Assembly (NCBI RefSeq): GCF_001434055.1
Contig: NZ_AZCZ01000027.1
Coordinates: forward strand, 1-37,047
Length of the DNA stretch: 37,047 bases
Direction of reading: 5' to 3'
Source of the DNA: Levilactobacillus parabrevis ATCC 53295
GTDB lineage: Bacteria; Bacillota; Bacilli; Lactobacillales; Lactobacillaceae
The notes beneath the pieces are model-generated. The model was not told the origin of the DNA and did no database searches. It was given only the letters and a program-made list of their open reading frames with translations. How positions within the stretch are numbered: position 1 is the stretch's first letter; each line of letters starts with the position of its first letter. This document shows, piece by piece, positions 6,589 to 32,624 of this stretch. The position numbers and the translations under genes were made by a program.

Positions 6589-6779
6589 TGCCTCCGGGAT
6601 GGTGAAAATCGCCCGTGACGCTGTGGGCGGACGCCGGAAGCCACAGAACGGTCTTCCGGCTTGGTTTTAAGCCGACAAATCACGTCTTAAAACCACCCAG
6701 TTCTCTAACCGGCTAAAATACGCCGGTAAGAGAACTCCCACAGCTGAGGCGATTTTCACCATCCCTGCGGCTAAGCTAG
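6589..6779 (-). repeat. Structured intergenic repeat, copy A (about 190 bp, intact)
   Basis: The closing stem is an exact 18-bp inverted repeat, gggatggtgaaaatcgcc at 6596-6613 and its complement at 6748-6765. Inside it GCTGTGGG (6620-6627) pairs with CCCACAGC (6737-6744). Three hairpins follow. HP1 is gccggaag/cttccggc (6633-6640, 6653-6660) with a 12-nt loop. HP2 is tggttttaag/cttaaaacca (6662-6671, 6686-6695). HP3 is gttctctaaccggc/gccggtaagagaac (6700-6713, 6722-6735), with one A-A mismatch. It fills the 520-bp region between the divergent phosphatase and ltaS genes. Orientation is defined so that copies D and F are forward on the plus strand, which makes this copy forward on the minus strand. 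Confidence 0.85.
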
Positions 6780-6828
6780 TACTAACCAACCGTTCAAATT
6801 ACCTTCTACTGTATTCATTTATTAACTA

Positions 6829-6857
6829 AAAGTATGACAGTCTTATACCATCATCAA
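6829..6857 (-). promoter_or_regulatory. Putative promoter of the histidine phosphatase operon
   Basis: On the minus strand TTGATG (6857-6852) and TACTTT (6834-6829) are separated by 17 bp. If used, the transcript would carry all of repeat element A in a leader of about 280 nt before the start codon at 6545. Confidence 0.4.
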
Positions 6858-7021
6858 TTCTATATCTCTAGTGTACCAAATAACATCACCAGCGGCGCAT
6901 GATTTCCCCATGGGACTTAAAATTTCCCTAAACTTACCCGAAGAATCCCTATCGGACCGGGGAATTTGCTAGGATAGGGAAAATGCCTGCGTTACGGGTG
7001 ACGGTTATTGCCCGTTAACTA

Positions 7022-7030
7022 TGGTAGAAT
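7022..7030 (+). promoter_or_regulatory. Extended -10 promoter of the ltaS-like gene
   Basis: TGGTAGAAT is an extended -10 element (TGn plus TAGAAT) 37 bp before the TTG start codon. No convincing -35 at the ideal distance was seen, as is common for extended -10 promoters. Confidence 0.5.
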
Positions 7031-7066
7031 AAGACTACTTATTTACAAATGAAGGAGCGAAATAAC

Positions 7067-9199
7067 TTGGAACGTTTCAAAAAGATCTGGGCCAGAACGG
7101 GGACACGGATGGGCTTTACGACCCTGCTCGTCGTGATCTTTTGGCTAAAGACATTAGTCGCCTATTTCGTCGACTTCAAATTAGGGCTCAGCGACCCCTT
7201 CCAGTTTCTCATCGTCCTCTTGAATCCAATTGCGACAACCATCCTGCTCTTCGGACTGGCGCTGTACCTGAAGCGGGCACGATTCTTCTACCCATTTATT
7301 TTTCTGATCGACATTCTTAACTCCCTACTGCTCTACATCAACGTCATCTACTTCCGGGAGTTCACCGACTTCATGACGGTCAGTACCATGTTGGGTTATT
7401 CAAAGGTCGACCAGGGACTCTCCGGCAGTTCGCTGGCACTGACCTCCCCCCACGACATTCTCTACTGGCTGGACCTGGTCATCGTCATCGTCTTGATGCT
7501 GACGCGGCGAATCTATATTGATCCTCGCCCCGTCAACAAACGAGTGGCTTTCGCCGTGACGTCGGTCGGCCTCCTCGCCTTTTCCGTCAACCTGACGCTG
7601 GGCGAAATGGACCGGCCACAGCTTCTGACGCGGACCTTCGATCGGACCTACGTGGTGAAGTACTTAGGATTAGACGCCTTCACCGTTTACGATGGTATCA
7701 AATCTGGCCACACTAGCGAGCTTCGTTCACACGCCAAGAAGTCCGAGCTCAGTGGTATTCTAAAATACGTTCATGGCAACTACGCGGCACCCGACAAAGA
7801 TCTCTACGGGGTCGCTAAAAAGAAAAACGTCATCATCATTCACTTGGAAAGTTTCCAACAATTCTTGATTAACAAGAAGGTTAACGGCCAAGAAGTCACG
7901 CCATTTCTGAACAAGCTCTACAAGAGCAAATCCACCTACAGCTTCGACAACTTCTTCCATGAAGTCGGTCAAGGGAAGACTTCCGACGCCGAAACGATGC
8001 TGGAAACCGGAACGTATGGCCTCTCTCAAGGGTCCCTATTCACTCAACTGGGCAACGACAACACCTTCCAGGCTGCACCGGCCATCTTCAATCAAGCTGG
8101 TTACACGAGTGCCGTCTTCCATGGTAACGTTGGGAGCTTCTGGAACCGAAACAACACTTACAAGAACCTGGGTTATCAGTACTTCTTCGATGCCAGTTAC
8201 TATGACACCTCTGGGGATAAGTCGTTAGGCTATGGTTTGAAGGACAAGCTGCTCTTCAACGACTCCGTGAAATACCTGCAGCACCTCCAACAGCCATTTT
8301 ACGTGAAATACTTGACCGTCTCGAACCACTTCCCATTCTCCTTGGATAGTGAGGATAGTACCTTCAAGACCCCAGACACTGGCGACAAGACCGTTGATAA
8401 TTACTTCAAGACGGCTAACTACCTCGATCAGTCGATTCAAGAATTCTACCACTACCTTAACAAGTCTGGGTTAGCAAAGAATTCACTGGTAATGATCTAC
8501 GGGGACCACTACGGTATTTCTAATTCATCCAACAAGAGTCTGGCGAAGTTGCTCGGCGTCAATCCGGACGACTGGAACGATTACAACAACGCGCAGCTAC
8601 AACGGGTACCACTGATGTTCAACATGCCTGGCTACAAGAAGGGTAAGATTGAACACACTTACGGTGGTGAAGTCGATGTGTTGCCAACCCTGCTCCATCT
8701 GATGGGGATGAACAGCAAGAAATACCTCCAGTTTGGAACGGACCTGTTCTCTAAACAACACAATCAGGTTGTCGCCTTCCGTAACCGTGACTGGGAAAGT
8801 CCGGGTTATACATCCGTCGACGACACCATTTACAGTAATAAGACCCAACAGGTCATTCACCCGACTGGGAAGCTGAAGGCTAAGATTGATAAGATGCAGG
8901 CACATGTCAACGAGGGGCTGAGCCTATCCGACTCACTGAACAACAAGAACCTCTTACGTTTCTACCATCCTAAGGGCTTTACAGCAGTCGATCCGAGCGA
9001 TTATAACTACTCGGACGGCTTACAAAAGGCTGAAAAACTGGAAAAGAAACTGGGCTTAAAATCAACCAGTCTCTTCTCCCGCAATGGCGACAAGTCCACG
9101 CAAGGCCTCTACAAGACCGATGCACCAGAACTTAACCACAAGCAGACTGATTCTAACCGGATCAAGATTACCAATCAGGACGATACCAGCGGCAAATAA
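7067..9199 (+). CDS. ltaS: Lipoteichoic acid synthase-like membrane sulfatase-fold protein (LtaS family)
   Basis: This enzyme polymerises glycerol phosphate from phosphatidylglycerol onto the lipid anchor outside the membrane. The 710-aa protein has five N-terminal membrane helices (about residues 15-175) and an extracellular sulfatase-fold domain (about 250-580). The nucleophile is Thr305 in GQGKTSDAE. Metal-binding residues are visible as Glu261 in HLESFQ and the Asp-His of YGDHYGIS. A long charged tail follows the catalytic domain. The TTG at 7067 is the start: AAGGAG lies 9 nt before it, and the upstream ATG at 7049 overlaps that ribosome site. It is monocistronic and ends at a strong terminator. 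A primase or a paralogous LtaS with different specificity is possible. Confidence 0.92.
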   Translation: MERFKKIWARTGTRMGFTTLLVVIFWLKTLVAYFVDFKLGLSDPFQFLIVLLNPIATTILLFGLALYLKRARFFYPFIFLIDILNSLLLYINVIYFREFTDFMTVSTMLGYSKVDQGLSGSSLALTSPHDILYWLDLVIVIVLMLTRRIYIDPRPVNKRVAFAVTSVGLLAFSVNLTLGEMDRPQLLTRTFDRTYVVKYLGLDAFTVYDGIKSGHTSELRSHAKKSELSGILKYVHGNYAAPDKDLYGVAKKKNVIIIHLESFQQFLINKKVNGQEVTPFLNKLYKSKSTYSFDNFFHEVGQGKTSDAETMLETGTYGLSQGSLFTQLGNDNTFQAAPAIFNQAGYTSAVFHGNVGSFWNRNNTYKNLGYQYFFDASYYDTSGDKSLGYGLKDKLLFNDSVKYLQHLQQPFYVKYLTVSNHFPFSLDSEDSTFKTPDTGDKTVDNYFKTANYLDQSIQEFYHYLNKSGLAKNSLVMIYGDHYGISNSSNKSLAKLLGVNPDDWNDYNNAQLQRVPLMFNMPGYKKGKIEHTYGGEVDVLPTLLHLMGMNSKKYLQFGTDLFSKQHNQVVAFRNRDWESPGYTSVDDTIYSNKTQQVIHPTGKLKAKIDKMQAHVNEGLSLSDSLNNKNLLRFYHPKGFTAVDPSDYNYSDGLQKAEKLEKKLGLKSTSLFSRNGDKSTQGLYKTDAPELNHKQTDSNRIKITNQDDTSGK

Positions 9200-9219
9200 G
9201 GCACAACTTGCCACAAAAT

Positions 9220-9265
9220 AAAGAAGCTATCCGTTCAATCTTAACGATGAGCGGATAGCTTCTTT
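9220..9265. terminator. Bidirectional terminator between ltaS and the ferredoxin-NADP reductase gene
   Basis: AAGAAGCTATCCG pairs with CGGATAGCTTCTT around a loop, with A- and T-rich flanks. It separates two convergent genes. Confidence 0.85.
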
Positions 9266-9285
9266 GCTTTTAACAAACCGAAATC

Positions 9286-10281
9286 TTAAGGTTTAGGGGT
9301 AATCGACGTACTGTGGACTGGGCCGCGACGGTCAGGAAAGTACGTGCTCATGATGGCTTGCACGGCAATTGGTGCTTCGCCGTAACCAATGGCAATCAAT
9401 GGCTCCTTGCCAGGATAGGTGGCCCCATCCCCAATCGCATAGATGCCGGGAACACTGGTCGTCATCTGCCGGTCAACGGCAATCAAACGCCGGTCCTCAG
9501 CCATATCCACGTCCCAGGCGGCCAAGGCCGAGTGGTCGGCGGTAAAGCCGTAGCTAACGACCAAATCATCAATGACTTGGTGAACCATATCGCTAGCCGC
9601 ACCCACGGGCTTCAACGTTACATCCAAAGCACCTTCGGCCGTGGCTTGCAGGTCCCGAATCAGGTATGGCGTTTTTACATTAACGGTCGATTCATGCAAC
9701 AAGTCCACCATGTGCGCCAGTCCACGGAACTGGGCGCGACGGTGAAGTAACGTGACGGACTTAGCAACCGGCACCAGCATCAGGGCTTGGTCGATGGCGG
9801 CATCACCACCCCCAGCGACCATCACACGGTGGCCACGGAACTTCTCCAAGTCACGGACACTGTAAAAGAGCTGCTTGCCAGCAAAATCATCGGCCCCGGC
9901 CACGTTTAACTTACGCGGCTTGAAAGCACCGTTACCCACGGCAACAATGACCGCTCGCGTCTGGCTTGTGCCCTTCGGCGTGGTAATCAAGAAGCCATCT
10001 GCATTGGGCGTCACGTTAGTCACGGACTCGTCCGTCTTGATAGTCAACGGAAATTGTTTGAGCTGCTCGCGTTGCCCGGCAATCAGATCACGGCCGGTGA
10101 CGCCCGGAAAACCCGCAACGTCAAGAATCGTCTTCTCCGGATAGAGGGCATCGACCTGCCCGCCCAGTGAAGAGAGACTCTCGACGACTTGGGTCTTGGC
10201 ATTGTGCATCCCGGCGTAAAAGGCGGCAAACATACCGACTGGGCCACCGCCAACAATGGTAATATCATAAGATTCTGTCAT
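9286..10281 (-). CDS. Ferredoxin/flavodoxin-NADP+ reductase, thioredoxin-reductase-like type
   Basis: The 331-aa flavoprotein passes electrons between NADPH and ferredoxin or flavodoxin. The FAD-binding motif is VGGGPVGMFAAFYAG near residue 9, and SSLGGQVDALYPEK follows. The NADPH-binding motif is VAGGGDAAIDQAL near 155, and the C-terminal FAD motif is GIYAIGDGATYPGKEPLIAIGYGEAPIAV. The CxxC pair of true thioredoxin reductases is absent, which places it in the TrxR-like FNR (YumC) family. ATG at 10281 follows GGAG at 9 nt. Only 52 bp separate it from the divergent hydrolase gene. Confidence 0.92.
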   Translation of the reverse strand: MTESYDITIVGGGPVGMFAAFYAGMHNAKTQVVESLSSLGGQVDALYPEKTILDVAGFPGVTGRDLIAGQREQLKQFPLTIKTDESVTNVTPNADGFLITTPKGTSQTRAVIVAVGNGAFKPRKLNVAGADDFAGKQLFYSVRDLEKFRGHRVMVAGGGDAAIDQALMLVPVAKSVTLLHRRAQFRGLAHMVDLLHESTVNVKTPYLIRDLQATAEGALDVTLKPVGAASDMVHQVIDDLVVSYGFTADHSALAAWDVDMAEDRRLIAVDRQMTTSVPGIYAIGDGATYPGKEPLIAIGYGEAPIAVQAIMSTYFPDRRGPVHSTSITPKP

Positions 10282-10333
10282 AATTTTGAACTCCATTTCT
10301 TTAACTCGACAAACACCTGAGGAGGTGATGGCT

Positions 10334-11089
10334 ATGAAACATCTGCGCGGACTCACGATTCTCCTGACCGCACTGGTCACGCTAGGCGCACTCGCTTGGG
10401 GCTGGCACGCGCGTCAAGCCGCCTTAGCGACGACCCGTGTTCCGCAGACGCGCACGGCCACCCTTTTCTTACCAGGAAACAGCGGCGGCTGGCTCTCCAT
10501 GCGGGACATGGTTCTCAGCCTCAACCGCCCACAACTGGCCCGCTTTAGCCTGACCGCGCGCGTGACCGATAGCGGACACGTCAGCTGGCAACAACACCAG
10601 CCCATCAATACTAATCCACTGGTACCGGTACTCTTTAAGGATAACACTCATGCCGCCAGAGAAGCGCGTCAACTCGTAACGGTGTTGACTCAACTACGAG
10701 CACGTTACGGCATTACCCACGTTAACTTCGTTGGCCACTCCTCGGGTGGCACGATTGCTTACGACTACCTGAACCAAGCCCGACGCGCGCCCGTGACGGT
10801 CAGCCGGATTGTCTGCATCGGCGCCGACTTTCCTGGCTGCCCACCACTTCGAGCGCACTACCCCCAGCTACACATCTTAAATCTTGCGGGCAGCATTGGT
10901 TTGACCGGCAACGACAGCGAGGTCCCTGTAGACACGGCGACCCCACTACGACACTTAGTTGCGGGTCACGTCGGTAGCTATCGTTTCGAAGAGCTGCGTG
11001 GTCCGGTGTGGGATATGCAACATTCCCTACTTCACGAGAACCCGGCGATTGATCGAAAAATCATTAGGTTTCTCTATCCGCCGAGTTGA
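10334..11089 (+). CDS. DUF915 alpha/beta hydrolase, membrane-anchored or secreted
   Basis: The 251-aa protein begins with a signal or anchor helix (LTILLTALVTLGALAWGW). The hydrolase domain follows, with the oxyanion region FLPGNSGGWLSMRDMV and the nucleophile Ser136 in VGHSSGGTIAYDYL. A late Asp (NDSEVPVDTA) and the His of LLHENPAI are plausible triad partners. DUF915 hydrolases are common in lactobacilli and act outside the membrane; their substrates are unknown. The ATG at 10334 lies 8 nt after AGGAGG; the ATG at 10328 is too close to it. Its last 16 bp overlap the convergent PrsW gene. A paralog is encoded at 14970-15797. Confidence 0.85.
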   Translation: MKHLRGLTILLTALVTLGALAWGWHARQAALATTRVPQTRTATLFLPGNSGGWLSMRDMVLSLNRPQLARFSLTARVTDSGHVSWQQHQPINTNPLVPVLFKDNTHAAREARQLVTVLTQLRARYGITHVNFVGHSSGGTIAYDYLNQARRAPVTVSRIVCIGADFPGCPPLRAHYPQLHILNLAGSIGLTGNDSEVPVDTATPLRHLVAGHVGSYRFEELRGPVWDMQHSLLHENPAIDRKIIRFLYPPS

Positions 11090-18229: not shown

Positions 18230-19396
18230 TTAAGCATCCATGCCCAAACTGTAGGCGTGGTTCATCAATGACTTGGTTTCGGTAAATTCGTTCTCATCGT
18301 GCAGAACGACCGTGATCACCCGGTGCTTACCGGCTTTCTGGCCAGTCCCCACGAAGCAGTACCCTGCCAGTGGCGTATACCCGGTCTTCAAACCGTCCAC
18401 GTTCAGGCTCGCCTGATAATACTTGCGACCCTGTAACATGTTGTTGTAGTTATAGCATAATTGACCGTTGACCCGCTTGGAACCGACAGAACCATCCGTC
18501 AGAATCTGCGGGTAATCCTTGATCAGATGCCGCGCGATCAACGCCACATCCTTAGCGGAAACCATGTTGGCGTTGGCAGAACCGTAGTTGTAGCCAAACG
18601 CCTTTAAATCACTGTTTTCCAAACCAGAAGCGGAGACAAAGCTGGCCTTGTCCAAATTCCAGGATTGCGCTTGCGCATTCATCTTCTTGATGAATTTAGC
18701 GTTACTGCCAGAAACCCATTGGCCCAGCGCGATGGCGGCGTTGTTCGACGAATCTAGCAGTGCCGCATCGTATAATTCCTTAACCGTATACTTGTGATTG
18801 CTGTAGAACCTGAAGCCCCCACAGCTAGCACTATTGCCCATGGCAACTAACCCCCGATTATTGGTCTTCACGATGTCGGTCCACTTACCGGAACCATTGT
18901 CGATCTTATCCAAGACCAGGTACAGCGTCATCAGCTTGGAAACGGAAGCGATTGGCCGCGCCGTATTCGCACGCTTAGACCAAACCGCCTTACCCGTCGT
19001 GTAGTCTAAAGCAACGGCATTTTTGGCGTATTTCAGCCCAAATGGTGCCTTTCCCTTCTTCAGGTAGCCATGCCAGATCCAGCCCTTAACGGAGCCGCTC
19101 TTGTTAGCAACGTAGTAGTAAATTCCCTTGGAGTTACTGTGCTTGAGTGTGGCCTGTTGCGTCACGTACCAGGTTGTGTTGGGATAGCCCTTCATCGTAG
19201 CGATTCTCTTGTTATGTGCCTTATTGTAAATGGCTCCCGCTGCACTCTTCTTATGATAAGCGGCTTTCGTCACTGATTTCGTCGACACCGTGGTGTAAGT
19301 TGCGGCGTTGGCGGTCACCTGAACGTTTACGGCAGCCCCTAATGTGACCGTAAACAACAGGGCCAGCATGAACCCCTTGAACTTTGAAATTCTCAT
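18230..19396 (-). CDS. D-alanyl-D-alanine carboxypeptidase, peptidase S11, with N-terminal SH3-like domain
   Basis: This 388-aa exported penicillin-binding protein trims the terminal D-Ala of peptidoglycan stem peptides. It has a signal peptide (residues 1-31, ending VTANAA). An N-terminal domain at about 35-118 has the shape of a GW/SH3-like wall-binding module (TTWYVTQQATLKH, GSVKGWIWHGYLKKGKAP). The S11 catalytic domain follows, with SVSK at 151-154, SSN at 216-218 and KTG at 337-339. It lacks the C-terminal amphipathic anchor region of DacA, so it is about the length of the catalytic core plus module. ATG at 19396 follows AGGGG at about 11 nt. A close paralog lies just upstream; both have WalR-like sites. 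Confidence 0.92.
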   Translation of the reverse strand: MRISKFKGFMLALLFTVTLGAAVNVQVTANAATYTTVSTKSVTKAAYHKKSAAGAIYNKAHNKRIATMKGYPNTTWYVTQQATLKHSNSKGIYYYVANKSGSVKGWIWHGYLKKGKAPFGLKYAKNAVALDYTTGKAVWSKRANTARPIASVSKLMTLYLVLDKIDNGSGKWTDIVKTNNRGLVAMGNSASCGGFRFYSNHKYTVKELYDAALLDSSNNAAIALGQWVSGSNAKFIKKMNAQAQSWNLDKASFVSASGLENSDLKAFGYNYGSANANMVSAKDVALIARHLIKDYPQILTDGSVGSKRVNGQLCYNYNNMLQGRKYYQASLNVDGLKTGYTPLAGYCFVGTGQKAGKHRVITVVLHDENEFTETKSLMNHAYSLGMDA

Positions 19397-19476
19397 TGGT
19401 ATGTATTCCCCTTTTCTAATCTCTAACCCACAGCCTACCATGTTAAATAGACCGCAGACAAGGGGTCGCGCGACTT

Positions 19477-19703: not shown

Positions 19704-20876
19704 CTAGTTATTCATGCTGATCATACCGTAAGCATGATTCATGAGCGACCGTGTTTCTGTGAACTCATTTTCATCATGTAGGACGACCGTAATCACCCGG
19801 TGCTTGCCGGACTTCTGACCCGTCCCAACGAAACAGTAACCGGCCAATGGCGTGTAACCGGTCTTTAACCCATCAACCTTCAAAGACGCGCGGTAGTATT
19901 TCCGTCCCTTCAACAAGTTGTTGTAATTGTGGCAAACCTGCCCGTTGACCTTCATTGAGCCAATCTTACCGTCCTTCAAGACCCGCGGATACTGAGTCAT
20001 CAGATGACGCGCAATCAACGCCACATCCTTAGCCGAAACCTTGTTGGCGTTGGCCTTGCCATAGGCGTAGCCGTACTGCCGCAAGTCGCTGTTCTCCAAG
20101 CCGGATGCTGAAACAAAGTGAGCTTGGCCCATCTTCCAGGCCTTGGCCTGCGCATTCATTTTCCGAATGAACTTACCGTTACTGCCACCGACCCACTGGC
20201 CCAGTGCAATCGCTGAGTTGTTAGATGAATCCAAGAAGGCTGCGTAGTAGAGCTGACGAACCGTGTACTTATGGTTCAGCTTAAAGTGGAAGCCGCCATA
20301 CGCAGCACTACGACTCATCGAGACCAGACCGCGACTGGTAATCTTGATTTTGTGATTCCAGTTACGCGACTTGCCATCGATCTTCTTCAACGTCAGATAC
20401 AATGTCATCAGTTTAGAAACGGACGCAATTGGTCGCGCCGTGTTGGCGTGCTTGGCCCAAACGACCTTCCCCGTCTTCGCGTCCATGGCAACGGCCGCTC
20501 TGGCTTTAGTCAAAGTAAACGGTGCCTTCCCCTTTTTCAGGTACCCGTGCCAAATCCAGCCCTTAACGCTACTCTTGCTATTCTTGACGTAGAAGTAAAT
20601 TCCCTTGGTCTTCCCGTGCTTCAACGTTGCTTGCTTGGTGGCATACCACGTTGTGTGGGGGTGTGCAGTTAGGTTAATAACCTTACGGGTGTGCCGCTTG
20701 TTGAAGATGGCGCCTTTGGCACTCTTCTTGTGATAAGCCGTTTTCTTGATTGATTTGGTGCTGACCGTCTTATACCCAGTGGCAGCGTTCACCGGCACAA
20801 CTGGACTAACTACGCCGCCTACCGTAATGGCCACGGCAAACGCGATAAGACCGCGTTTCATATGTACTTTACGCAT
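19704..20876 (-). CDS. D-alanyl-D-alanine carboxypeptidase, peptidase S11, paralog
   Basis: The 390-aa protein has the same architecture as the protein at 18230-19396. It has a signal peptide (cleavage near VNAATG, residue 33), an SH3-like module (about 36-120) and an S11 domain with SVSK at 152-155, SSN at 217-219 and KTG near 338-340. The C-terminal stretches around GLKTGYTPLAGYCFVGTGQK and KHRVITVVLHDENEFTET are nearly identical between the two, while the modules differ more. This copy is more basic. ATG at 20876 lies 8 nt after AAGGG. A long in-frame extension to 21041 covers the promoter and is rejected. A perfect WalR-type box lies upstream. Confidence 0.92.
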   Translation of the reverse strand: MRKVHMKRGLIAFAVAITVGGVVSPVVPVNAATGYKTVSTKSIKKTAYHKKSAKGAIFNKRHTRKVINLTAHPHTTWYATKQATLKHGKTKGIYFYVKNSKSSVKGWIWHGYLKKGKAPFTLTKARAAVAMDAKTGKVVWAKHANTARPIASVSKLMTLYLTLKKIDGKSRNWNHKIKITSRGLVSMSRSAAYGGFHFKLNHKYTVRQLYYAAFLDSSNNSAIALGQWVGGSNGKFIRKMNAQAKAWKMGQAHFVSASGLENSDLRQYGYAYGKANANKVSAKDVALIARHLMTQYPRVLKDGKIGSMKVNGQVCHNYNNLLKGRKYYRASLKVDGLKTGYTPLAGYCFVGTGQKSGKHRVITVVLHDENEFTETRSLMNHAYGMISMNN

Positions 20877-20922
20877 AACTCGAACCCTTCCTATCCAACA
20901 ATAATTAAGACAACTAACGATT

Positions 20923-20951
20923 AGAATAGCACTCTTTCTCAGCAACCGAAA
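20923..20951 (-). promoter_or_regulatory. Putative promoter of the second carboxypeptidase gene
   Basis: On the minus strand TTTCGG (20951-20946) and TATTCT (20928-20923) are 17 bp apart. The WalR-type box begins 27 bp upstream of the -35 position, a location compatible with activation. Confidence 0.4.
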
Positions 20952-20977
20952 GCGTTCTGGGGGGACACTAGTGCGAC

Positions 20978-20994
20978 TGTAACGTAGTTGTAAA
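20978..20994 (+). promoter_or_regulatory. Perfect WalR (YycF)-type box
   Basis: TGTAAC-GTAGT-TGTAAA matches TGTWAH-N5-TGTWAH at every defined position. It lies about 100 bp upstream of the carboxypeptidase start codon, on the opposite strand. WalR control of peptidoglycan-trimming enzymes is well known in low-GC Gram-positive bacteria. Confidence 0.6.
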
Positions 20995-21049
20995 AATAAT
21001 TTTGCCGCTGAACAGCTCATAGCATAGAAACGATTTTTCACGGCTGCGG

Positions 21050-21078: not shown

Positions 21079-21091
21079 AAGATTAATCAAA

Positions 21092-21167
21092 TACGACTGG
21101 GGTGCCATCGCGGCTGAGATCAAACCCATTGAACCTGCTCTGGTTAATACCAGCGAAGGGAACGCGT
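21092..21167 (+). ncRNA. TPP riboswitch (THI element)
   Basis: The conserved aptamer blocks appear in order: GGGGTGCC, GGCTGAGAT, then ACCCATTGAACCTG, then CTGGTTAATACCAGCGAAGGGAA. The closing stem is formed by TACG at 21092 and CGTA at the end. It precedes ykoE and is followed by a terminator, so thiamin pyrophosphate should shut off transcription of the operon. Confidence 0.95.
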
Positions 21168-21185
21168 AATCAATAGCTATCAATG

Positions 21186-21217
21186 ACCCCACTAAGTGTA
21201 TTAGTGGGGATTTTTTT
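21186..21217 (+). terminator. Terminator of the TPP riboswitch expression platform
   Basis: CCCCACTAA pairs with TTAGTGGGG, followed by seven T. It lies 20 bp after the aptamer and 47 bp before the ykoE start, as expected for transcription attenuation. Confidence 0.88.
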
Positions 21218-21263
21218 AGCATTGGTGGCCCCTCAGCGTCAAAATTTTAGGAGGCGGATGCTT

Positions 21264-21818
21264 ATGAAACGTTGGCATATTAGAGATATTATTTTAGTAA
21301 CGATTATTGCAATTTTTATGGGCGTTATTTTTTGGGCAATTGGTCCGGTTTACACAATTTTGGCGGCAGCTTTAGCGCCATTCGGGTTACAACCGCTAGC
21401 AAATGAACTGTTGTTAGGAATCTGGGTCATGGCGGGGCCCCTCGCCGGTTTCGTGATTCGGATTCCCGGCGCGGCAACCTTGGGTGAATTGCTGGGTGCC
21501 GTGGTAGAAATGTTTCTCGGCGGTATCTGGGGAGCCAGCACCCTGATTTCCGGTGTCCTCCAAGGTTTCGGTTCCGAACTCGGTTTCATCTTCACCGGCT
21601 ACAAGCGTTACGGCTGGTTCACGCTAGCTATGAGCACGCTTACCACGACCATCGTCACCTTCGCATGGGACCTGATTCGTAACGGGTACACGGCTTACCA
21701 CTTACCATTTCTGTTACTGTTGTTCGTTGTGCGGTTGCTGTCCGTCTTCGTCTTCGGTGGCGTGCTGACCAAGCTGATCAACAATCTCCTAGTGCGCGCC
21801 CACGTTTTGAAGGACTAA
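21264..21818 (+). CDS. ykoE: ECF transporter S component for thiamin precursor (YkoE)
   Basis: The 184-aa membrane protein is the substrate-binding subunit of an energy-coupling-factor transporter for thiamin or its pyrimidine moiety HMP. About five to six hydrophobic segments are visible, with the YkoE-like stretches RIPGAATLGELLGAVVEMFLGG and GLQGFG-like GVLQGFGSELGFIFTGYKRYG. The ATG at 21264 lies 9 nt after AGGAGG; the ATG at 21258 is too close. Control is by the TPP riboswitch directly upstream. The partner genes ykoD and ykoC follow, but only after a 340-bp gap filled by structured repeat B. Confidence 0.92.
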   Translation: MKRWHIRDIILVTIIAIFMGVIFWAIGPVYTILAAALAPFGLQPLANELLLGIWVMAGPLAGFVIRIPGAATLGELLGAVVEMFLGGIWGASTLISGVLQGFGSELGFIFTGYKRYGWFTLAMSTLTTTIVTFAWDLIRNGYTAYHLPFLLLLFVVRLLSVFVFGGVLTKLINNLLVRAHVLKD

Positions 21819-21827: not shown

Positions 21828-22017
21828 CGCCTTACCGGGTGGCGCAAATAAACTGGAACGCTGGGGCGGACGCCGGAAGCCAAAGAACGGTCTTCTGGCT
21901 TGTCTTTGAACCTCTAAGAACCGAGTTTCAAAGACACCAATTCTCTAAGTGGCAGAATCGCCACTAAGAGAATTCCCACGGCTGAGCTTATTTGCGCCAC
22001 CCTCACGGCTTACATGG
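21828..22017 (-). repeat. Structured intergenic repeat, copy B (190 bp, intact), inside the thiamin operon
   Basis: The closing stem is an exact 15-bp inverted repeat, gggtggcgcaaataa at 21837-21851 and its complement at 21988-22002. HP1 is gccggaag/cttctggc (21872-21879, 21892-21899; one G-T pair), with loop ccaaagaacggt. HP2 is tgtctttgaa/ttcaaagaca (21901-21910, 21927-21936). HP3 is aattctctaagtggc/gccactaagagaatt (21939-21953, 21960-21974), with the same A-A mismatch as copy A. Ends CGCCTTACCGGG and CCTCACGGCTTACATGG match copy D in reverse. It is in reverse orientation relative to the ykoE-ykoD direction. Confidence 0.88.
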
Positions 22018-25355: not shown

Positions 25356-25450
25356 CGCCTGCGGCTGTCAGGAATTCCGTCGCTGTGGGGACCGCCCACA
25401 GCCTGAGAAACGGGCTTTCGGCTTGGTTTGAAATCACATTCTCATTTCGT
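25356..25450 (-). repeat. Structured intergenic repeat, copy C (truncated and degenerate)
   Basis: The stretch CGCCTGCGGCTGTCAGGAAT onward, through GTCGCTGTGGGGACCGCCCA and GGCTTTCGGCTTGGTTTGAA, aligns with copy E and more loosely with the first half of copy A. The alignment stops after the HP2 region, so HP3 and the second arm of the closing stem are missing. It lies 120 bp before copy D and in opposite orientation to it. Confidence 0.6.
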
Positions 25451-25481
25451 AATTAGAAGCTATTTAATTGATGATAACCTT

Positions 25482-25510
25482 AGTCCGTCCACGGTGGCGG
25501 ACTTTTTGTT
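25482..25510 (+). terminator. Terminator downstream of the thiamin operon and small membrane protein
   Basis: AGTCCG pairs with CGGACT with additional inner pairs, followed by TTTTTGTTTG. It lies between repeat copies C and D. Confidence 0.75.
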
Positions 25511-25570
25511 TGATTCTAAGACAATGAAATTGAAAGGGAGCATAAACAAACTGCAAAGGGAATACTAAAT

Positions 25571-25760
25571 CCATGTAAGCCGTGAGGACGGCGTAAATCA
25601 GCCCAGCCGTGTGAAAGTTCTTAGTGGCGAACCTTGCCGCTTAGAACTTTGGTGTCTTTGAAACGCGCTTCTCAGCGGTTCAAAGCAAGGTCAGAGACCG
25701 CTCTTTGGCTCTGGCCGCCCGCCCACGCGTTCCGGCTGATTTACGCCGCCCGGTAAGGCG
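25571..25760 (+). repeat. Structured intergenic repeat, copy D (190 bp, intact)
   Basis: The closing stem is an exact 15-bp inverted repeat, cggcgtaaatcagcc at 25589-25603 and its complement at 25734-25748. HP3 is aaagttcttagtggc/gccgcttagaacttt (25614-25628, 25636-25650), with a T-T mismatch at the place where copies A and B have A-A on the other strand. HP2 is ctttgaa/ttcaaag (25656-25662, 25679-25685). HP1 is ggtcagag/ctctggcc (25689-25696, 25709-25716), with loop accgctctttgg. The ends are CCATGTAAGCCGTGAGG and CCCGGTAAGGCG. With the surrounding 25338-25934 it forms a gene-free stretch. Confidence 0.88.
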
Positions 25761-27792: not shown

Positions 27793-28959
27793 TTACAGGT
27801 CGCCTTCCACACGTAGTTGACGCTCTACCAGATAGGCGTCCAAATACCCAAAGGCGATTTCGTCAACATCACTGATGCGATAAACCTTGCCCACCTGATC
27901 CAGTTGATTATCCTCAACTTCATGGAAGATGAACCGCTCGCCACCGACCTGACTTGGATACCCCAACAGACCAGTGGTGTCGTGCATCTTCAAGCGGATA
28001 ATCGTTCGAAAGGCTGCCGCTTGGGTCAACCGCGCGCTGAACTGGTCAACGGTCGGATCGAACAGCCGCTCGTCGTTTAAGACCGGCTGAATCTGATGCT
28101 GCCGCGCTTGATTCAAGAGCGAGAACAGCCGCATCGTCTGTAGATAATCGGATTCGATGACTACTGCATGTAGCTCAGTCAGCCGCATCACGGTGTACCC
28201 ACCAAATTGTCCAGTCATATCGATCAAGTTCATGACCACGGCATTTTCCGTGACCACGTTGATCCGCCCAACAAAGAAAAGCTCCTTGTCGTGTGCTGGT
28301 ACCAGCGCAACCAGTGACTCTTGTCCCGCCAGTTTCTGCAGTGTTTCTGGAATGGCCTTGGCATCGGTCACTTCCTTAGGCGCCACGTGCGATAACTTCC
28401 GCAGATGGGGTGCCGCAATCCCTTGCAGCGTCAATTCTTTACCTTGAAACTCGATAACTTCAAGTTCAGCTGGATTCAGCGTAAAGACCGGCTGATCCGT
28501 ATAATCAAATTTATTCAAAAGTTGGATGGTCACTTGATCCGCTGCCACGCTGGTCACTAAGCCCTCGTAGAAGTGCTCGTCACCCTTGACGACTAGCATG
28601 ACGACCAGATGATCGACCCACGCGTGACTCAACACCTGCCGGCGCAAGTCGCGCTGACTGTCAAAGTCCATGGTTAGACCACCGGCTTGGATAAACTGCT
28701 CTTCTTGAGCTGTTTGAATCCGAAAAGCCATGTTATCCAAGTCATCGCTTGAAAACTCAACTTCATCGATGACATCGACCGCTAGGAACACGGCACCATC
28801 CGGCAAACCAAAATCATCAAACGTGGCGAGAATAATGCCGGAATCGCTGACCGTCGTCACGTAGCCGGTGTACACGACCTCTTGGTTAGTTTGATACACG
28901 TTAACCAATATATGCTGAGCCAACGCCCGGTTTAAATCATTCATAATCGAATTCAACAT
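27793..28959 (-). CDS. Four-repeat beta-rich (Sm-like) protein of unknown function
   Basis: The 388-aa soluble protein contains four related units of about 60 residues at about 15-75, 113-173, 213-270 and 316-372, separated by helical linkers. Each unit has the plan hydrophobic strand, charged turn, Y-x-G-x-V-x-x-V-x-x-x-x-I strand pair, then D-x-x-G and a closing I-D-E-V-strand. Examples are VVYTGYVTTVSDSGIILATF, HFYEGLVTSVAADQVTIQLL and LFFVGRINVVTENAVVMNLI. This resembles the five-strand barrel of Sm/LSm and other SH3-like domains; the assignment is structural inference, not a recognised motif. ATG follows GGGGG at 5 nt. It heads the operon with the membrane, zinc-ribbon and macro-domain genes. 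Confidence 0.75.
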   Translation of the reverse strand: MLNSIMNDLNRALAQHILVNVYQTNQEVVYTGYVTTVSDSGIILATFDDFGLPDGAVFLAVDVIDEVEFSSDDLDNMAFRIQTAQEEQFIQAGGLTMDFDSQRDLRRQVLSHAWVDHLVVMLVVKGDEHFYEGLVTSVAADQVTIQLLNKFDYTDQPVFTLNPAELEVIEFQGKELTLQGIAAPHLRKLSHVAPKEVTDAKAIPETLQKLAGQESLVALVPAHDKELFFVGRINVVTENAVVMNLIDMTGQFGGYTVMRLTELHAVVIESDYLQTMRLFSLLNQARQHQIQPVLNDERLFDPTVDQFSARLTQAAAFRTIIRLKMHDTTGLLGYPSQVGGERFIFHEVEDNQLDQVGKVYRISDVDEIAFGYLDAYLVERQLRVEGDL

Positions 28960-29084
28960 GACGACCCCCTTTTTATTTGAAGCTTAACTCGGCCGCTAAA
29001 ACGCACCCCGAGCTTATTTCTACTGTTCTGAAAATCTTATCATATCTGACTGAAAATAGCTCGTGAGCCGCCGCTAATTTCCGT

Positions 29085-30059
29085 TTAAGATACGGCCGTG
29101 CTCAGATACTCCGCGAGACGGTCACCCTGTAAGCCAGCGCTGAGGCCGACTAACAGCTTGATTCGAGCCTTTTGGCCGTTCAAGCCTTGGCATAACATCA
29201 AGCCCATCTTGCGTAGCTCGATACCACCACCCTGATAGTCGTAAATGTCCTCGGCAACGCCATTATAACACCGTGAGACTAAGACTAACGGGATATGCCG
29301 ATCTAAGAGGCGCTGAATGGCTGGTAAGGTAACTGGCGGTAAATTCCCAGCACCCAAGCCTTCGATGACGATACCGGCTGTCTGGTCACTGTTCAGGGCA
29401 TCAAATAAACTGGCGTCCATCCCCGCGTAGGCCTTGAGCAAGTACACGTGATCCACCACGTGGTCGATGTCGCAGGTCGCTTCTCGAATCAGCTGTTGGA
29501 AGTAGATTGGCTGTCCCTTGGCAACCAGACCAATGGGACCAAACGTCGGCGTGCGGAAAGTGGCAACGTTGGTGGTATGGGTCTTGGTCACGTACCGCGC
29601 CGTATGAATCTCATCGTTCATCACGACCATGACCCCATTGCCCCGTGAGGCGTCGTCTGCGGCCACTTCAATGGCCGTCTGAAAGTTATACAAGCCATCG
29701 GACCCAACTTCGTTAGAGGAGCGCATGGCCCCCGTCACGACTACGGGAATGGTGCTGGGCAGGGTCAGGTCGAGGAAATACGCTGTTTCTTCTAGCGTAT
29801 CGGTTCCGTGGGTGATGACCACGCCGTCGATGCCTTCCTTTTCTCCCTGGTTGATACGTTCCTTGATCTTCAGCATTTCAACCGGTGTCACGTGCGGTGA
29901 CGGTAAATTGAAGAGTTCGTCGGTAATCAGCTCAACGCGCCCTTCCATAATCGTTTCTTGCTGGGCAATTGGGTTCTGAGCGTTGGGCACGACCTCCCCC
30001 TTTTCGTTCTGGGACATCGAGATTGTTCCGCCCGTATGGATGGCTAAAATTTTCTTCAC
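29085..30059 (-). CDS. L-asparaginase, type I (AnsA-like)
   Basis: The 324-aa cytoplasmic enzyme hydrolyses asparagine to aspartate and ammonia. The first catalytic Thr is in ILAIHTGGTISM. The second Thr, with its Asp, is in VITHGTDTLEETAYFL; the conserved Lys lies in RYVTKTHTTN. TGAMRSSNEVGSDG completes the active-site set. GTG at 30059 is preferred because family members begin at (M)KKILxxHTGGTI; the TTG at 30080 would add seven residues, and both ribosome sites are weak. There is no signal peptide, consistent with type I. The gene is monocistronic; no clear terminator was seen downstream. Confidence 0.92.
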   Translation of the reverse strand: MKKILAIHTGGTISMSQNEKGEVVPNAQNPIAQQETIMEGRVELITDELFNLPSPHVTPVEMLKIKERINQGEKEGIDGVVITHGTDTLEETAYFLDLTLPSTIPVVVTGAMRSSNEVGSDGLYNFQTAIEVAADDASRGNGVMVVMNDEIHTARYVTKTHTTNVATFRTPTFGPIGLVAKGQPIYFQQLIREATCDIDHVVDHVYLLKAYAGMDASLFDALNSDQTAGIVIEGLGAGNLPPVTLPAIQRLLDRHIPLVLVSRCYNGVAEDIYDYQGGGIELRKMGLMLCQGLNGQKARIKLLVGLSAGLQGDRLAEYLSTAVS

Positions 30060-30153
30060 AACCGTCAACTTCTTTCTCAAAAGATTTTCTTTCCCACATT
30101 GTACCTTATTTGCTGTAGAATTTAGTTAGAATTAGGAGAGGATGTGTGGAAAT

Positions 30154-30303
30154 ATGCCGAAAAAAGATGAAAGCGCTAAACCCTACCGCCCTGGTGTGGT
30201 CGTCCACCCCAAAAAGTACAGCAATTCCGGTGGTGTCGCAGACTGGGGACCGCTATTCACTTGGTTTAGCGGGCTTTTCAAGAAACTATGGCATCGGCAT
30301 TAG
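30154..30303 (+). CDS. Small basic protein, 49 aa, unknown
   Basis: The product begins MPKKDESAKPYRPGVVVHPK. It continues with a Gly/Trp segment and an aromatic amphipathic C-terminus (GPLFTWFSGLFKKLWHRH), which looks membrane-active. AGGAGAGG lies 12 nt before the ATG. The amphipathic tail with lysines and tryptophans could be a membrane anchor or a peptide-toxin-like helix; no family was recognised. It lies between divergent asparaginase and the guanine riboswitch and is probably transcribed separately. Confidence 0.55.
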   Translation: MPKKDESAKPYRPGVVVHPKKYSNSGGVADWGPLFTWFSGLFKKLWHRH

Positions 30304-30333
30304 AAAAGTCTACCGGGTGTTGTTTTTTTCATT
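30294..30333 (+). terminator. Weak terminator after the 49-aa gene
   Basis: CATCGG pairs with CCGGGTG (one bulge) around the stop codon region, followed by TTGTTTTTTTC. The long loop makes this tentative. Confidence 0.3.
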
Positions 30334-30378
30334 TTCACGTGGTAAAGTTATCAACATTCCATTAAAAAAATAAAGTGA

Positions 30379-30448
30379 TTGCCTATATAATGCCAAGATA
30401 AGGTTGGCGAGTTTCTACCCAGAGCCGTAAACTCTGGACTATAAGCAA
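30379..30448 (+). ncRNA. Purine riboswitch, guanine type
   Basis: The aptamer has P2 GCCAA/TTGGC with loop GATAAGG, J2/3 GAGTTTCTAC, P3 CCAGAG/CTCTGG with loop CCGTAAA, and J3/1 ACTAT. The loops match the known loop-loop kissing pair. The specificity base in J3/1 is C (GGACTAT), as in guanine-sensing members; adenine-sensing ones have T. It precedes a purine permease gene. Confidence 0.94.
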
Positions 30449-30504
30449 ATTGAGGACGAAACTCTTTTTGCCGATGAAAAGAGTTCGTCGGTAGAGTTTT
30501 TAAG

Positions 30505-30534
30505 AAGCCCCCTTTTTGCAAAGGGAGCTTTTTT
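30505..30534 (+). terminator. Terminator of the guanine riboswitch expression platform
   Basis: AAGCCCCCTTT pairs with AAAGGGAGCTT, followed by TTTTTTG. An additional 13-bp hairpin (GACGA-ACTCTTTT with AAAAGAGT-TCGTC, about 30454-30489) lies between aptamer and terminator and may form the antiterminating alternative. Confidence 0.85.
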
Positions 30535-30586
30535 GTTTTCATCAACCTTGGCGGCGTATGGACATCACGAGAAGGAGGAACTTTTC

Positions 30587-31963
30587 TTGCAGTCCACTAA
30601 GTCCGCAACACCAGCCTCGTCATCAGAAAACGGGCCCGCCTTACCCATGTGGCGCGCGGCCATTCTCGGTTTTCAGCATTTATTAGCTATGTACTCTGGT
30701 GACGTCATCGTTCCCTTACTGATCGGGGGCGCGCTTCATTTTAACGCCATGCAAATGGCCTACTTAATCAGTGCGGATATCTTCATGTGTGGGGTTGCAA
30801 CCCTCCTACAGCTCAAACGGACACCGTTGACTGGAATCGGCCTGCCCGTCGTTCTCGGCTGTGCGGTCCAAGCCGTGACGCCACTGAGCGCTATCGGTAA
30901 TCAATACGGCGTGGGCGTCATGTACGGGGCCATCATCAGCGCTGGGATCTTCGTCTTCCTTAGCGCTGGGTGGTTTTCAAAGATCAAGAACTTCTTCCCA
31001 CCCGTTGTGACTGGCTCACTCATCACCATTATTGGGTTTACGCTAATCCCCGTCGGCTTCCAAGATCTCGGTGGTGGGGACGCCACGGCGAAGAACTTTG
31101 GTGATCCCAAGATGTTGCTGATCGGCTTTCTGACGATGGGGATCATCTTAGGACTCAATGTCTTTGCCAAGGGATTTCTTAAATCACTGGCCATTCTAGC
31201 CGGTATCCTGATTGGCACATTCATTGCCGCCGCTATGGGCATGGTTTCTCTAAAGGCCGTGGGTCAAGCCAGCTGGTTTCACCTGCCGCAGTTCTTCTAC
31301 TTCGGCACGCCCAAGTTCGAATGGTCTTCTATTCTGACGATGATTCTGGTGTCGCTGACCACGATGGTTGAATCAACGGGAGTCTTCTTCGCTCTCGGCG
31401 AGATCACCGGTCGTAAGATTGGCGAAAAGGATTTAAAACGTGGCTACCGCGCTGAAGGTATCGCCGTGATTCTCGGCGGCCTCTTCAACACCTTCCCCTA
31501 CTCGACTTTCTCCGAAAACGTGGGGGTCGTGCAACTATCTGGCGTCAAGACCCGTAAGCCACTTTACTTCTCAGCATTGTTTCTCATGCTGCTAGGCTTA
31601 CTGCCTAAGATTGGGGCTCTCGCCACGGTCATCCCCAACGCCGTCCTCGGTGGTGCGATGATCGTTATGTTTGGGATGGTTGGTGTGCAAGGTATCCGGA
31701 TGCTGCAACAGGTTGACTTTAAGGACAACAACAATCTATTGGTCTCCGCCATCTCCATCGGTTTAGGCTTAGGCGTCACCGTCTATCCCCAGATCTTTCA
31801 AGCCATGCCTCAGTCGCTTCAGATCATCATGAACAACGGGGTCGTCATCGGCAGTTTCTCCGCGATCATCTTAAATATTGTGTTCAACATGCGGCCACAA
31901 CGGGCAGTAGCGCCAGCCCAGGCACAGGTCAACACGACTGTCCAGCCGCAGAATCATCACTAA
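30587..31963 (+). CDS. pbuX: Xanthine/guanine permease (NCS2 family, PbuX-like)
   Basis: The 458-aa, 14-segment nucleobase-cation symporter imports xanthine or guanine. Landmarks are LGFQHLLAMYSGDVIVPLLIGGAL at the N-terminus, the NCS2 signature stretch around TTMVESTGVFFALGEITGRKI and the substrate-site NTFPYSTFSENVGVVQLSGVKTRKP. The start is TTG at 30587, 8 nt after GGAGG. The in-frame TTG at 30533 lies in the terminator and is rejected. The guanine riboswitch controls the gene. No xpt phosphoribosyltransferase gene precedes it, unlike the xpt-pbuX operon of Bacillus. Confidence 0.93.
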   Translation: MQSTKSATPASSSENGPALPMWRAAILGFQHLLAMYSGDVIVPLLIGGALHFNAMQMAYLISADIFMCGVATLLQLKRTPLTGIGLPVVLGCAVQAVTPLSAIGNQYGVGVMYGAIISAGIFVFLSAGWFSKIKNFFPPVVTGSLITIIGFTLIPVGFQDLGGGDATAKNFGDPKMLLIGFLTMGIILGLNVFAKGFLKSLAILAGILIGTFIAAAMGMVSLKAVGQASWFHLPQFFYFGTPKFEWSSILTMILVSLTTMVESTGVFFALGEITGRKIGEKDLKRGYRAEGIAVILGGLFNTFPYSTFSENVGVVQLSGVKTRKPLYFSALFLMLLGLLPKIGALATVIPNAVLGGAMIVMFGMVGVQGIRMLQQVDFKDNNNLLVSAISIGLGLGVTVYPQIFQAMPQSLQIIMNNGVVIGSFSAIILNIVFNMRPQRAVAPAQAQVNTTVQPQNHH

Positions 31964-31986
31964 CAGTTTCACGTTGTCTGTCACTG

Positions 31987-32031
31987 TAGCCAGTAACTGG
32001 GCCCCTTTGCCCTGATTGCCGGCTATTTTTG
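31987..32031 (+). terminator. Terminator of the purine permease gene
   Basis: TAGCC pairs with GGCTA and GGGC with GCCC in one long hairpin, followed by TTTTTG. Confidence 0.82.
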
Positions 32032-32079
32032 TCCGCAATTTTTGACGTTTAGGATTAACTATAAATTACGTAGCAGAAA

Positions 32080-32281
32080 ACCTCCGCCTACGGCTGCCAG
32101 AAATTCCGCCTGTTGTGGGGAGCGCCTGCAGCCAAAGATCTGGCTTCCAGCTCGGTTTGAAACCTCGCCGAAATCATGCGAGTTTCCAAACACGCCCCAC
32201 GCTGTAAGTCCGGGAAGAACCAATCGCCCGGCCTAACACCGTCGACACAACTGGCTGCATCCCTGGCCTCCTTCGGCTAAG
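32080..32281 (-). repeat. Structured intergenic repeat, copy E (degenerate, full length)
   Basis: The left part aligns with copy C (CCTACGGCTGCCAGAAATTC, TTGTGGGG, CAGCTCGGTTTGAAA). The right end CCTTCGGCTAAG resembles the right end of copy A (CCTGCGGCTAAG). HP2 survives as GTTTGAAACCTCGC (32155-32168) against GCGAGTTTCCAAAC (32178-32191), 12 of 14 pairs. GTGGGG/CCCCAC also remain (32115-32120, 32195-32200). The perfect closing stem and HP3 of the intact copies are not visible. It lies 149 bp before copy F in opposite orientation. Confidence 0.6.
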
Positions 32282-32430
32282 AAACCGATTTTCTACTTTA
32301 TATAAGCGTCACACCCATCCTGATAGTCATAAATTGTCTAATTTAAATCCTGTATATTTCCACTTAGACTGTTCCCAAAATGTGCTACCCAATTTCATTT
32401 CGAGTTAGCCAGCCGGTTGGAGGCTTACAT

Positions 32431-32624
32431 CCATGTGAGCCGTGAGGGCCGGTGAAAATGGGCTCAGCTGTGGGAATTCTCTTAGTGGCGGGTTGAGCCG
32501 CTTAGAGAATTGGTGGTCGTGAGACTCGTTCCCCAGAGGCTGACGGCCAAGCCTAAAGACCGTCCTTTGGCTTTAGGCGCCCGCCCTCAGCGACACGGCC
32601 CATTTTCACCGGCCCGGCAAGGCG
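32431..32624 (+). repeat. Structured intergenic repeat, copy F (194 bp, intact)
   Basis: The closing stem is an exact 18-bp inverted repeat, gggccggtgaaaatgggc at 32446-32463 and its complement at 32598-32615. HP3 is aattctcttagtggc/gccgcttagagaatt (32475-32489, 32497-32511), with T-T mismatch and one T-G pair. HP2 is tggtcgtgag/ctgacggcca (32514-32523, 32540-32549), with one wobble and one mismatch. HP1 is gcctaaag/ctttaggc (32551-32558, 32571-32578), with loop accgtcctttgg. The ends are CCATGTGAGCCGTGAGG and CCCGGCAAGGCG. It ends 20 bp before the promoter of the ABC transporter genes. Confidence 0.88.

What the first reader, a model, noticed from the sequence alone, without database searches (positions are those of the whole stretch)
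6589..32624. Family of about 190-bp intergenic elements with a conserved multi-branched fold and compensatory changes
Four copies (A 6589-6779, B 21828-22017, D 25571-25760, F 32431-32624) share length, end sequences and a four-stem plan: an exact 15-18 bp closing stem around three hairpins. The stem arms differ between copies yet stay complementary; closing arms read gggatggtgaaaatcgcc, gggtggcgcaaataa, cggcgtaaatcagcc and gggccggtgaaaatgggc. HP1 stems also vary, while their 12-nt loop stays near ACCGTTCTTTGG. Variable paired bases with constant unpaired bases are the mark of selection on structure. The elements occur only between genes. Possible roles are a structured RNA, a protein-bound chromosomal site or a hairpin-dependent mobile element. 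I do not recognise it as a named family.
Basis: partly seen in the sequence, partly recalled or inferred. Interest (0 to 1): 0.9.

Follow-up and report, generated by a model that had tools for sequence, protein, structure and literature searches.

The report
Twin structured mobile repeats in lactobacilli
The four repeats are modules of an apparently undescribed, probably mobile, non-coding DNA family of lactobacilli that occurs in over a hundred copies in some genomes, often as head-to-head twins, and whose intricate fold is kept by natural selection on one particular strand, which points to a folded RNA or single-stranded DNA.

Summary
In detail: all four ~190-nt copies are real, related and fold alike. 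They belong to a large family in Levilactobacillus: 138 matches in this genome (57 strong), 33 of 35 genomes of the genus, 11 of 40 genera sampled in the family, 0 of 23 genomes of other families. Rfam and my paper searches gave no name. A phylogeny-aware covariation test on 150 sequences finds 18 of 54 stem pairs significant; in 18 orthologous pairs, paired sites change about half as fast as unpaired ones.

(1) The folded strand is the opposite one for A and B: wobble tolerance and folding energy favour it (82 of 86 copies). (2) The copies are one module ("class I"); a related "class II" module often lies head-to-head. The window holds two (25356-25437, 32085-32282). Neighbours within 700 bp are convergent or tandem, never divergent (0 of 132). 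(3) A 440-bp twin recurs as a unit in several species; in one it sits between 15-bp terminal inverted repeats with 5-6-bp target duplications (7 of 19 repeat pairs; control 8 of 2000).

Best reading: a MITE-like twin whose modules act as outward-reading structured RNA (or ssDNA). Transcription, transposase and role are not shown.

The parts
6588..6778 (-). Copy A, class I module. Strand given = the strand that folds better as RNA (5' end at 6778, 3' end at 6588). No partner module found.
21828..22017 (-). Copy B, class I module (better-folding strand is minus); starts 10 bp after the stop of the ORF at 21183-21818. No partner found.
25356..25437 (-). Truncated class II module, head-to-head partner of D
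   Evidence: class II profile, 63 bits; weak class I profile match
25438..25570 (.). Stretch between the class II remnant and D
   Evidence: coordinates
25571..25760 (+). Copy D, class I module; ortholog at the same site in G001 (91.5% identical)
32085..32282 (-). Class II module E, head-to-head partner of F; orthologous module in G001
   Evidence: class II profile 142 bits; class I covariance model 25.6 bits; alignment
32283..32430 (.). Stretch between E and F
   Evidence: coordinates
32431..32624 (+). Copy F, class I module; in the orthologous G001 copy the HP1+HP2 block is replaced by a different but self-complementary sequence
32644..32673 (+). Promoter-like site (TTGGCT-18-TATAAT) between F and the ABC transporter ORF at 32706, also present in G001; so F lies upstream of this site. 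One such site is about what shuffles give (mean 0.7).
   Evidence: alignment; Pfam of the ORF

Best explanation
The copies are class I modules of a non-coding, MITE-like element family of the Lactobacillaceae. The full unit is a twin of about 440 bp: a class I and a related class II module (each ~185-200 nt; class I has one long closing stem around three hairpins), head-to-head around a linker, so that the folding strands of the two modules read outwards. SHOWN: family size and distribution; covariation (class I); constraint on one strand; head-to-head arrangement; amplification of the whole twin in several species; terminal inverted repeats with 5-6-bp target duplications in G014; replacement of modules or blocks at fixed sites between two species. 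INFERRED: (i) units spread by a transposase supplied in trans; (ii) recombination or conversion among copies homogenises them; (iii) each module acts as a folded single strand, most likely a transcribed RNA, and this function is kept at resident loci, because orthologous copies still conserve their pairs. What the RNA does (mark its own element for mobilisation, change transcript ends or decay, or act in trans) is open.
For: Genome: 138 matches, 57 of them >=120 bits (150 of 855 candidates scored, so a lower bound). Genus 33 of 35 with own genome, 0 of 23 genomes of other families of the order; family 39 of 151 genomes, 11 of 40 genera. Covariation: 18 of 54 pairs E<=0.05. Resident constraint: 18 vertically inherited orthologous pairs diverge 5.3% at paired and 9.7% at unpaired sites, with 19 compensated against 3 other double changes. 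Twin: neighbours <700 bp are convergent 22, tandem 1, divergent 0 in G000; 46/29/0 in the named-species loci; 34/0/0 in G014 (recounted in 106; orthologous sites in related species are not independent). The linker is conserved with the modules in G014, G019 and G023; the 440-bp unit matches as a whole in at least ten other genomes of the genus. Mobility: TIR ACTRAAGGTTGAAAG in G014 (90 matches against 11 for the reversed control); exact adjacent direct repeats >=5 bp at 7 of 19 TIR pairs (17 loci) against 8 of 2000 mismatched pairs.
Against: No transcript, 5' end or transposase was shown. TIRs on both sides were found only in G014 and, by extended matches, G017; G030 and G003 show one-sided extensions. 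Around copies of G000, G001 and named species there are few TIR-like hits (3, 1 and 9; no control run), so the TIRs may belong to a MITE that captured the twin. The one TIR unit with transposase ORFs (L300) is a secondary IS3-family insertion inside a class I module. Half the class I copies tested in this genome (19 of 38) have no partner within 450 bp. No clean empty site was recovered. No promoter-like or terminator-like excess around A, E or F. A consensus fold of class II was poor on my alignment.
Confidence: 0.6

Rival explanations
1. Selfish single-strand DNA element: the fold is needed only as ssDNA during mobilisation by a protein that recognises hairpins (as recalled for IS200/IS605 or REP elements), with no cellular RNA function.
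For: One-strand constraint fits ssDNA as well as RNA. Over 100 dispersed copies, gains and replacements.
Against: In G014 units have TIRs and 5-6-bp target duplications, the mark of a DDE-type transposase (established knowledge), not of single-strand transposition. No strand bias between chromosome halves in G014 (class I: 20+/18- and 16+/16-; origin not located). Resident orthologs still conserve pairing.
Confidence: 0.17
2. Cis-acting RNA element: a structured leader, 3' UTR element or insulator that tunes the neighbouring gene.
For: The 3' end of the folding strand lies near a gene: that end is nearer than the other in 102 of 124 copies, and the adjacent gene points away from the element in 38 of 52 and 78 of 124. 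High-copy bcr repeats of B. cereus are often parts of UTRs (PMC3446304, passages).
Against: The neighbour genes identified in the window are of different families. F lies upstream of a promoter-like site also present in G001. The gene-proximal end follows largely from the twin geometry. ORFs were called crudely.
Confidence: 0.13
3. Duplex or cruciform site bound by a chromosomal protein.
For: Intergenic, many copies, palindromic; many copies also sit between short inverted repeats (mean score 16.9 against 12.1 for mismatched flanks).
Against: A duplex or cruciform constrains both strands equally; here G.T is tolerated on one strand and A.C on the other.
Confidence: 0.05
4. Duplication artefact: stems look compensated only because whole modules were copied or converted.
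For: Replacement of the whole module or a block at 9 of 27 orthologous sites.
Against: The null keeps the tree and the number of substitutions per branch, and 18 structure pairs still stand out. Modules from other genera have different but complementary closing stems. 18 vertically inherited pairs show paired sites slower and 19 double compensations.
Confidence: 0.03

Closest known systems
bcr1-bcr18 repeats of the Bacillus cereus group (PMC3446304, passages read; original papers not held)
   Same: Intergenic repeats of a Gram-positive group; bcr1-3 MITE-like, bcr10 and bcr18 with conserved secondary structure; 84 of 165 and 62 of 155 copies found in transcripts in two strains
   Different: No sequence relation tested; no twin of two related multi-branched modules is described in the passages read
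RUP and BOX of Streptococcus pneumoniae (PMC2229807 and PMC10969869, passages; PMC3049150, listing only)
   Same: Many small intergenic repeats; MITE transcripts fold stably; RUP proposed to be moved by the transposase of IS630-Spn1
   Different: RUP is 107 bp with TA target; here 440-600 bp, TIR ACTRAAGGTTGAAAG in one species, target duplication 5-6 bp, no partner IS found
CIR repeats of Caulobacter/Brucella (PMC2229807, passages)
   Same: Two structured arms joined by a linker
   Different: Arms there are long inverted repeats with a GANTC motif; here each class I arm is itself a closing stem around hairpins
REP/BIME with RAYT (PMC3733652, listing only; inverted pairing and RAYT recalled)
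   Same: High-copy intergenic repeats, often as inverted pairs
   Different: 20-40 bp palindromes; here ~190-nt modules, with TIR/TSD in one species

Membership tests
MITE | short, non-coding, many dispersed intergenic copies | tested here: met
   138 matches in the genome; none of the 12 largest ORF clusters beside copies in named species looks by eye like a transposase (smaller clusters not looked at)
MITE | terminal inverted repeats | tested here: inconclusive
   Met in G014 and by extended matches G017; few TIR-like hits around copies of G000, G001 or the named species (3, 1 and 9)
MITE | target site duplication | tested here: inconclusive
   Exact >=5 bp at 7 of 19 TIR pairs in G014; not tested elsewhere
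MITE | related autonomous element with a transposase | tested here: not met
   In G014 only: of the TIR pairs fetched only L300 carries transposase ORFs, an IS3-family insertion inside a module. Other genomes not searched.
Rfam families (release 15) | covariance-model match at gathering score | tested here: not met
   Window: only purine and TPP riboswitches and a tRNA; A and the G014 unit at E<=10 give only matches far below the gathering score
REP/BIME | 20-40 bp palindrome | tested here: not met
   Module length ~190 nt
REP/BIME | Y1 (RAYT) transposase in the genome | not tested
   not searched
Structured RNA | significant covariation | tested here: met
Structured RNA | transcribed and folded in the cell | not testable with these tools
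   needs RNA-seq and chemical probing
bcr1 of Bacillus cereus | sequence homology | not tested
   original paper not held

The most novel reading that the evidence does not exclude
A new kind of genetic element: a transposable twin of two divergently read, multi-branched RNAs (possibly catalytic, or scaffolds for a host or transposase protein), old enough to be shared across Lactobacillaceae genera, whose RNA fold rather than any protein is the selected product.
Probability: 0.25. Interest if true: 0.92.

Novelty: new variant of a known kind. Interest (0 to 1): 0.74.

Why it matters
Lactobacillaceae are widely used food and gut bacteria, yet a repeat that takes up about 1% of this genome (138 x 190 bp of 2.6 Mb) has no name that I could find. 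Its fold is conserved across genera, on one strand, at resident loci. If it is an RNA, it would be among the most numerous structured RNA genes of these genomes. Because copies are many and diverged, its role can be tested directly with RNA-seq and deletions in harmless laboratory strains.

Tried and rejected
1. IS3 transposase as the autonomous partner: one TIR unit (L300) carries IS3-family ORFs, but alignment shows they sit inside a class I module, with GGA on both sides by eye: a secondary insertion. Rejected.

2. Composite transposon with genes between two copies (C46:118265+/120024-): the longer G001 version carries a TnpB-like ORF (judged by eye) between the same host genes. Rejected.

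3. Insertion into pre-existing hairpins: flanks of many copies are complementary, but some left arms overlap a coding end and no clean empty site was recovered (rows of 80 and 81 were cut in the output). Left open.

4. Single-strand transposition with replication-strand bias: none seen in G014.

6. Plasmid and phage collections: no match to B.

Against my reading: 19 of 38 class I copies have no partner. In 28 ortholog pairs judged on the A/B strand, 80 pair changes broke or made a pair against 117 double compensations, and most of the latter (97) lie in the nine low-identity pairs. Single changes in the 18 vertical pairs keep a pair on the folding strand only slightly more often than expected (28 of 57, p = 0.05). 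Some of the 11 genera rest on few or weak matches (best E 1e-6 to 1e-8); I looked at modules of six other genera.

Rows dropped: two fragmentary copies (C13_194, C75_1944) were left out of A3. One search used 137 typed rows of the 138 matches. The covariation set was cut from 211 to 150 at 90% identity; of the named set I left out the 15 L. fuyuanensis loci among the 80 titles shown, so the other 25 loci may hold more, and 8 of 127 copies are exact repeats of G001 copies. The orthology test used 40 G001 stretches chosen from the listed rows, against stretches holding 41 of the 57 strong G000 copies. One search used 18 of the 19 pairs above 0.86 identity (the partial L028 pair left out). The TSD test counts 19 TIR pairs from 17 of 40 G014 loci, which I had picked by TIR or twin. 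One search aligned 8 of the 20 fetched G014 twins, picked as the most alike.
Full report
OBSERVATION. The four copies exist at the stated places. Read in one orientation they align end to end; B and F fold with z-scores of -10.8 and -7.3. Blast of A against the window's own genome (G000, 2.61 Mb, 133 contigs) gives 42 matches, two of them only A's own arms. A profile finds 41 distinct copies at >=100 bits in the fetched stretches. A covariance model from 39 of them gives 138 matches in the genome at E<=0.1, 57 of them at >=120 bits (150 of 855 candidates scored, so a lower bound).

WHERE IT OCCURS. Genus: 33 of 35 genomes with the own one; 0 of 23 genomes of other families of the order. Family: 39 of 151 genomes, 11 of 40 genera, own genus included (stricter filters; some genera with few, weak matches). 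The corrected pattern scan of named genomes hit Levilactobacillus species (cerevisiae, lanxiensis, fuyuanensis, mulengensis, wangkuiensis, paucivorans, brevis CD0817, suantsaiihabitans, tujiorum, hammesii, humaensis) and an uncultured Lactobacillus MAG (80 of 105 titles shown). No match to B in plasmid or phage collections. Rfam gives no family.

STRUCTURE IS UNDER SELECTION. RNAalifold on 39 copies predicts 57 pairs, 37 with a change on both sides in at least one copy. For a stricter test I took 150 class I sequences below 90% identity (from 211), aligned by sequence only, and shuffled the inferred substitutions along the tree (40 null alignments). 18 of 54 structure pairs have E<=0.05. Of all 23 significant column pairs, 18 are in the structure, one more is a compatible G-C pair, and four link the two ends (columns 10/11 with 175/177), probably because the ends differ between subfamilies. 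Modules from other genera keep short motifs such as GCTGGAACG, AGCC...CGGTCT and CTGAGC (by eye), while their closing stems differ in sequence yet stay complementary.

ON WHICH STRAND. If an RNA or ssDNA folds, G.T pairs are tolerated on its strand and appear as A.C on the other. On the A/B strand A.C cells outnumber G.T 137 to 72 (55 of 57 pairs, 86 copies; 30 pairs against 12, p = 0.008), although the model was built on that strand. Folding energy agrees: the reverse strand is lower in 82 of 86 copies of G000 and G001, 108 of 127 of named species, 18 of 20 class I and 19 of 20 class II modules of G014; random windows 31 of 60. 17 of 21 further modules, 20 of them from six other genera, agree, and 211 of 233 class II sequences. 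On the tree, WC->G.T events outnumber WC->A.C 200 to 66 on that strand (there the structure was derived on that strand, which favours it). So the folding strand is minus for A and B and plus for D and F.

TWINS. Close neighbours (<700 bp) in G000 are convergent 22, tandem 1, divergent 0; in the named-species loci 46, 29, 0; in G014 34, 0, 0, with a gap mostly near 70 bp; recounted. Sites shared by related species are not independent. In G014 the partner is mostly a diverged class II module; in G000 it is class II for 11 and class I for 8 of 38 class I copies, and 19 have none within 450 bp. In G014, eight copies share one ~600-bp unit with conserved linker and outer parts; in G019 and G023 the class I-linker-class II unit is conserved among the ten copies fetched from each, one of them cut by a contig end; and the 440-bp core matches as a whole in at least ten other genomes of the genus. 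Convergent pairs also occur in two other genera, with linkers of 17, 18 and 115 nt in the three I measured. In the window the partners of D and F are 25356-25437 (truncated) and 32085-32282; A and B have none. Seen from the folding strands, the two modules of a twin read outwards.

MOBILITY. The G014 units end in ACTRAAGGTTGAAAG and its complement (90 matches in that genome with up to 2 mismatches against 11 for the reversed control). Exact adjacent direct repeats of >=5 bp flank 7 of 19 TIR pairs (17 loci) against 8 of 2000 mismatched pairs. Units with internal deletions exist. Around copies of G000, G001 and named species TIR-like hits are few (3, 1 and 9), so either other lineages used other ends, or their ends have decayed, or the G014 MITE captured the twin. 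The TIR unit with transposase ORFs, L300, proved to be an IS3-family insertion inside a class I module. The true mobilising enzyme is unknown.

TURNOVER AT FIXED SITES. Of the 40 G001 stretches fetched, 24 align by their flanks with a G000 stretch that I held. Of 27 orthologous module pairs compared, 18 are each other's nearest relatives and 9 are not: there the module was replaced wholly (7) or in part (L020 and F) by another family member at the same place and orientation, while flanking segments are 81-98% identical. Two replaced G001 copies 3.2 kb apart are 91% identical to each other, which points to conversion. In 18 vertically inherited pairs, paired sites differ at 5.3% and unpaired at 9.7%; 19 double changes keep the pair against 3 that do not; single changes keep a pair on the folding strand in 28 of 57 (expected 36%, p = 0.05). 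So constraint acts at resident loci, not only in actively moving copies; conversion may have added some of these double changes.

CONTEXT. With a crude ORF caller, the left end of the module (3' end of the folding strand) is nearer to a gene than the other end in 102 of 124 copies; the adjacent gene points away from the element in 78 of 124 and 38 of 52. Much of this follows from the twin geometry. Among the 12 largest ORF clusters beside the copies none looks like a mobilising enzyme. F lies upstream of a promoter-like site, so it would not be in that transcript's leader.

HOW IT MOST LIKELY WORKS. I commit to a MITE-like twin whose modules function as outward-reading folded single strands, most likely RNA (0.6 in all). 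The main rival is ssDNA used only in mobilisation (0.17). Transcription, transposase and function are not shown.

KNOWN KINDS. It resembles structured intergenic repeats and MITEs: RUP and CIR (PMC2229807, passages), BOX (PMC10969869, passages), bcr (PMC3446304, passages), stem-loop families (PMC2267715, passages; the one Lactobacillus family seen there, Lac-1 of L. johnsonii, lies in coding regions). Seven paper searches for a lactobacillus repeat of this kind listed none; the lists of 48, 58, 84 and 98 were cut. Three surveys of structured bacterial RNAs (PMC8040213, PMC8632094, PMC6429828) do not hold the word Lactobacill- in their main text. Supplementary files and most subscription journals were not searched. 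Hence: new variant of a known kind.

Noticed in passing
window 21088-21179 and 30363-30461: TPP riboswitch before an ORF with an ABC_cobalt domain (21183-21818), and a purine riboswitch before a permease-family ORF (Xan_ur_permease, 30533-31963).
   Followed up: no
window 18230-19441 and 19704-21041: Two neighbouring ORFs on the minus strand share stretches of 73-76% identical DNA: a tandem gene duplication.
   Followed up: no
L152 (G003) and L170 (G007), intergenic region of the locus of L003: A different, roughly 140-bp palindromic repeat (GGCAGCTGGTTCCGCTT...) lies at the orthologous place in two genomes (by eye); possibly another MITE family.
   Followed up: no
L300 723-2287: IS3-family insertion (two ORFs) inside a class I module, with GGA on both sides.
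   Followed up: yes
L314 139-1067 (G014): Two TIRs of the MITE family flank a ~930-bp stretch with what looks by eye like a NUDIX hydrolase gene.
   Followed up: no
G001:C45 163594-163992 (L079): TnpB-like ORF (zinc-finger motif recognised by eye) in the stretch between two copies that is shorter in G000.
   Followed up: partly
flanks of G000 copies, e.g. L012, L030, L010, L026: Short inverted repeats enclose many single modules; some left arms overlap the end of a coding sequence, so their origin is unexplained.
   Followed up: partly
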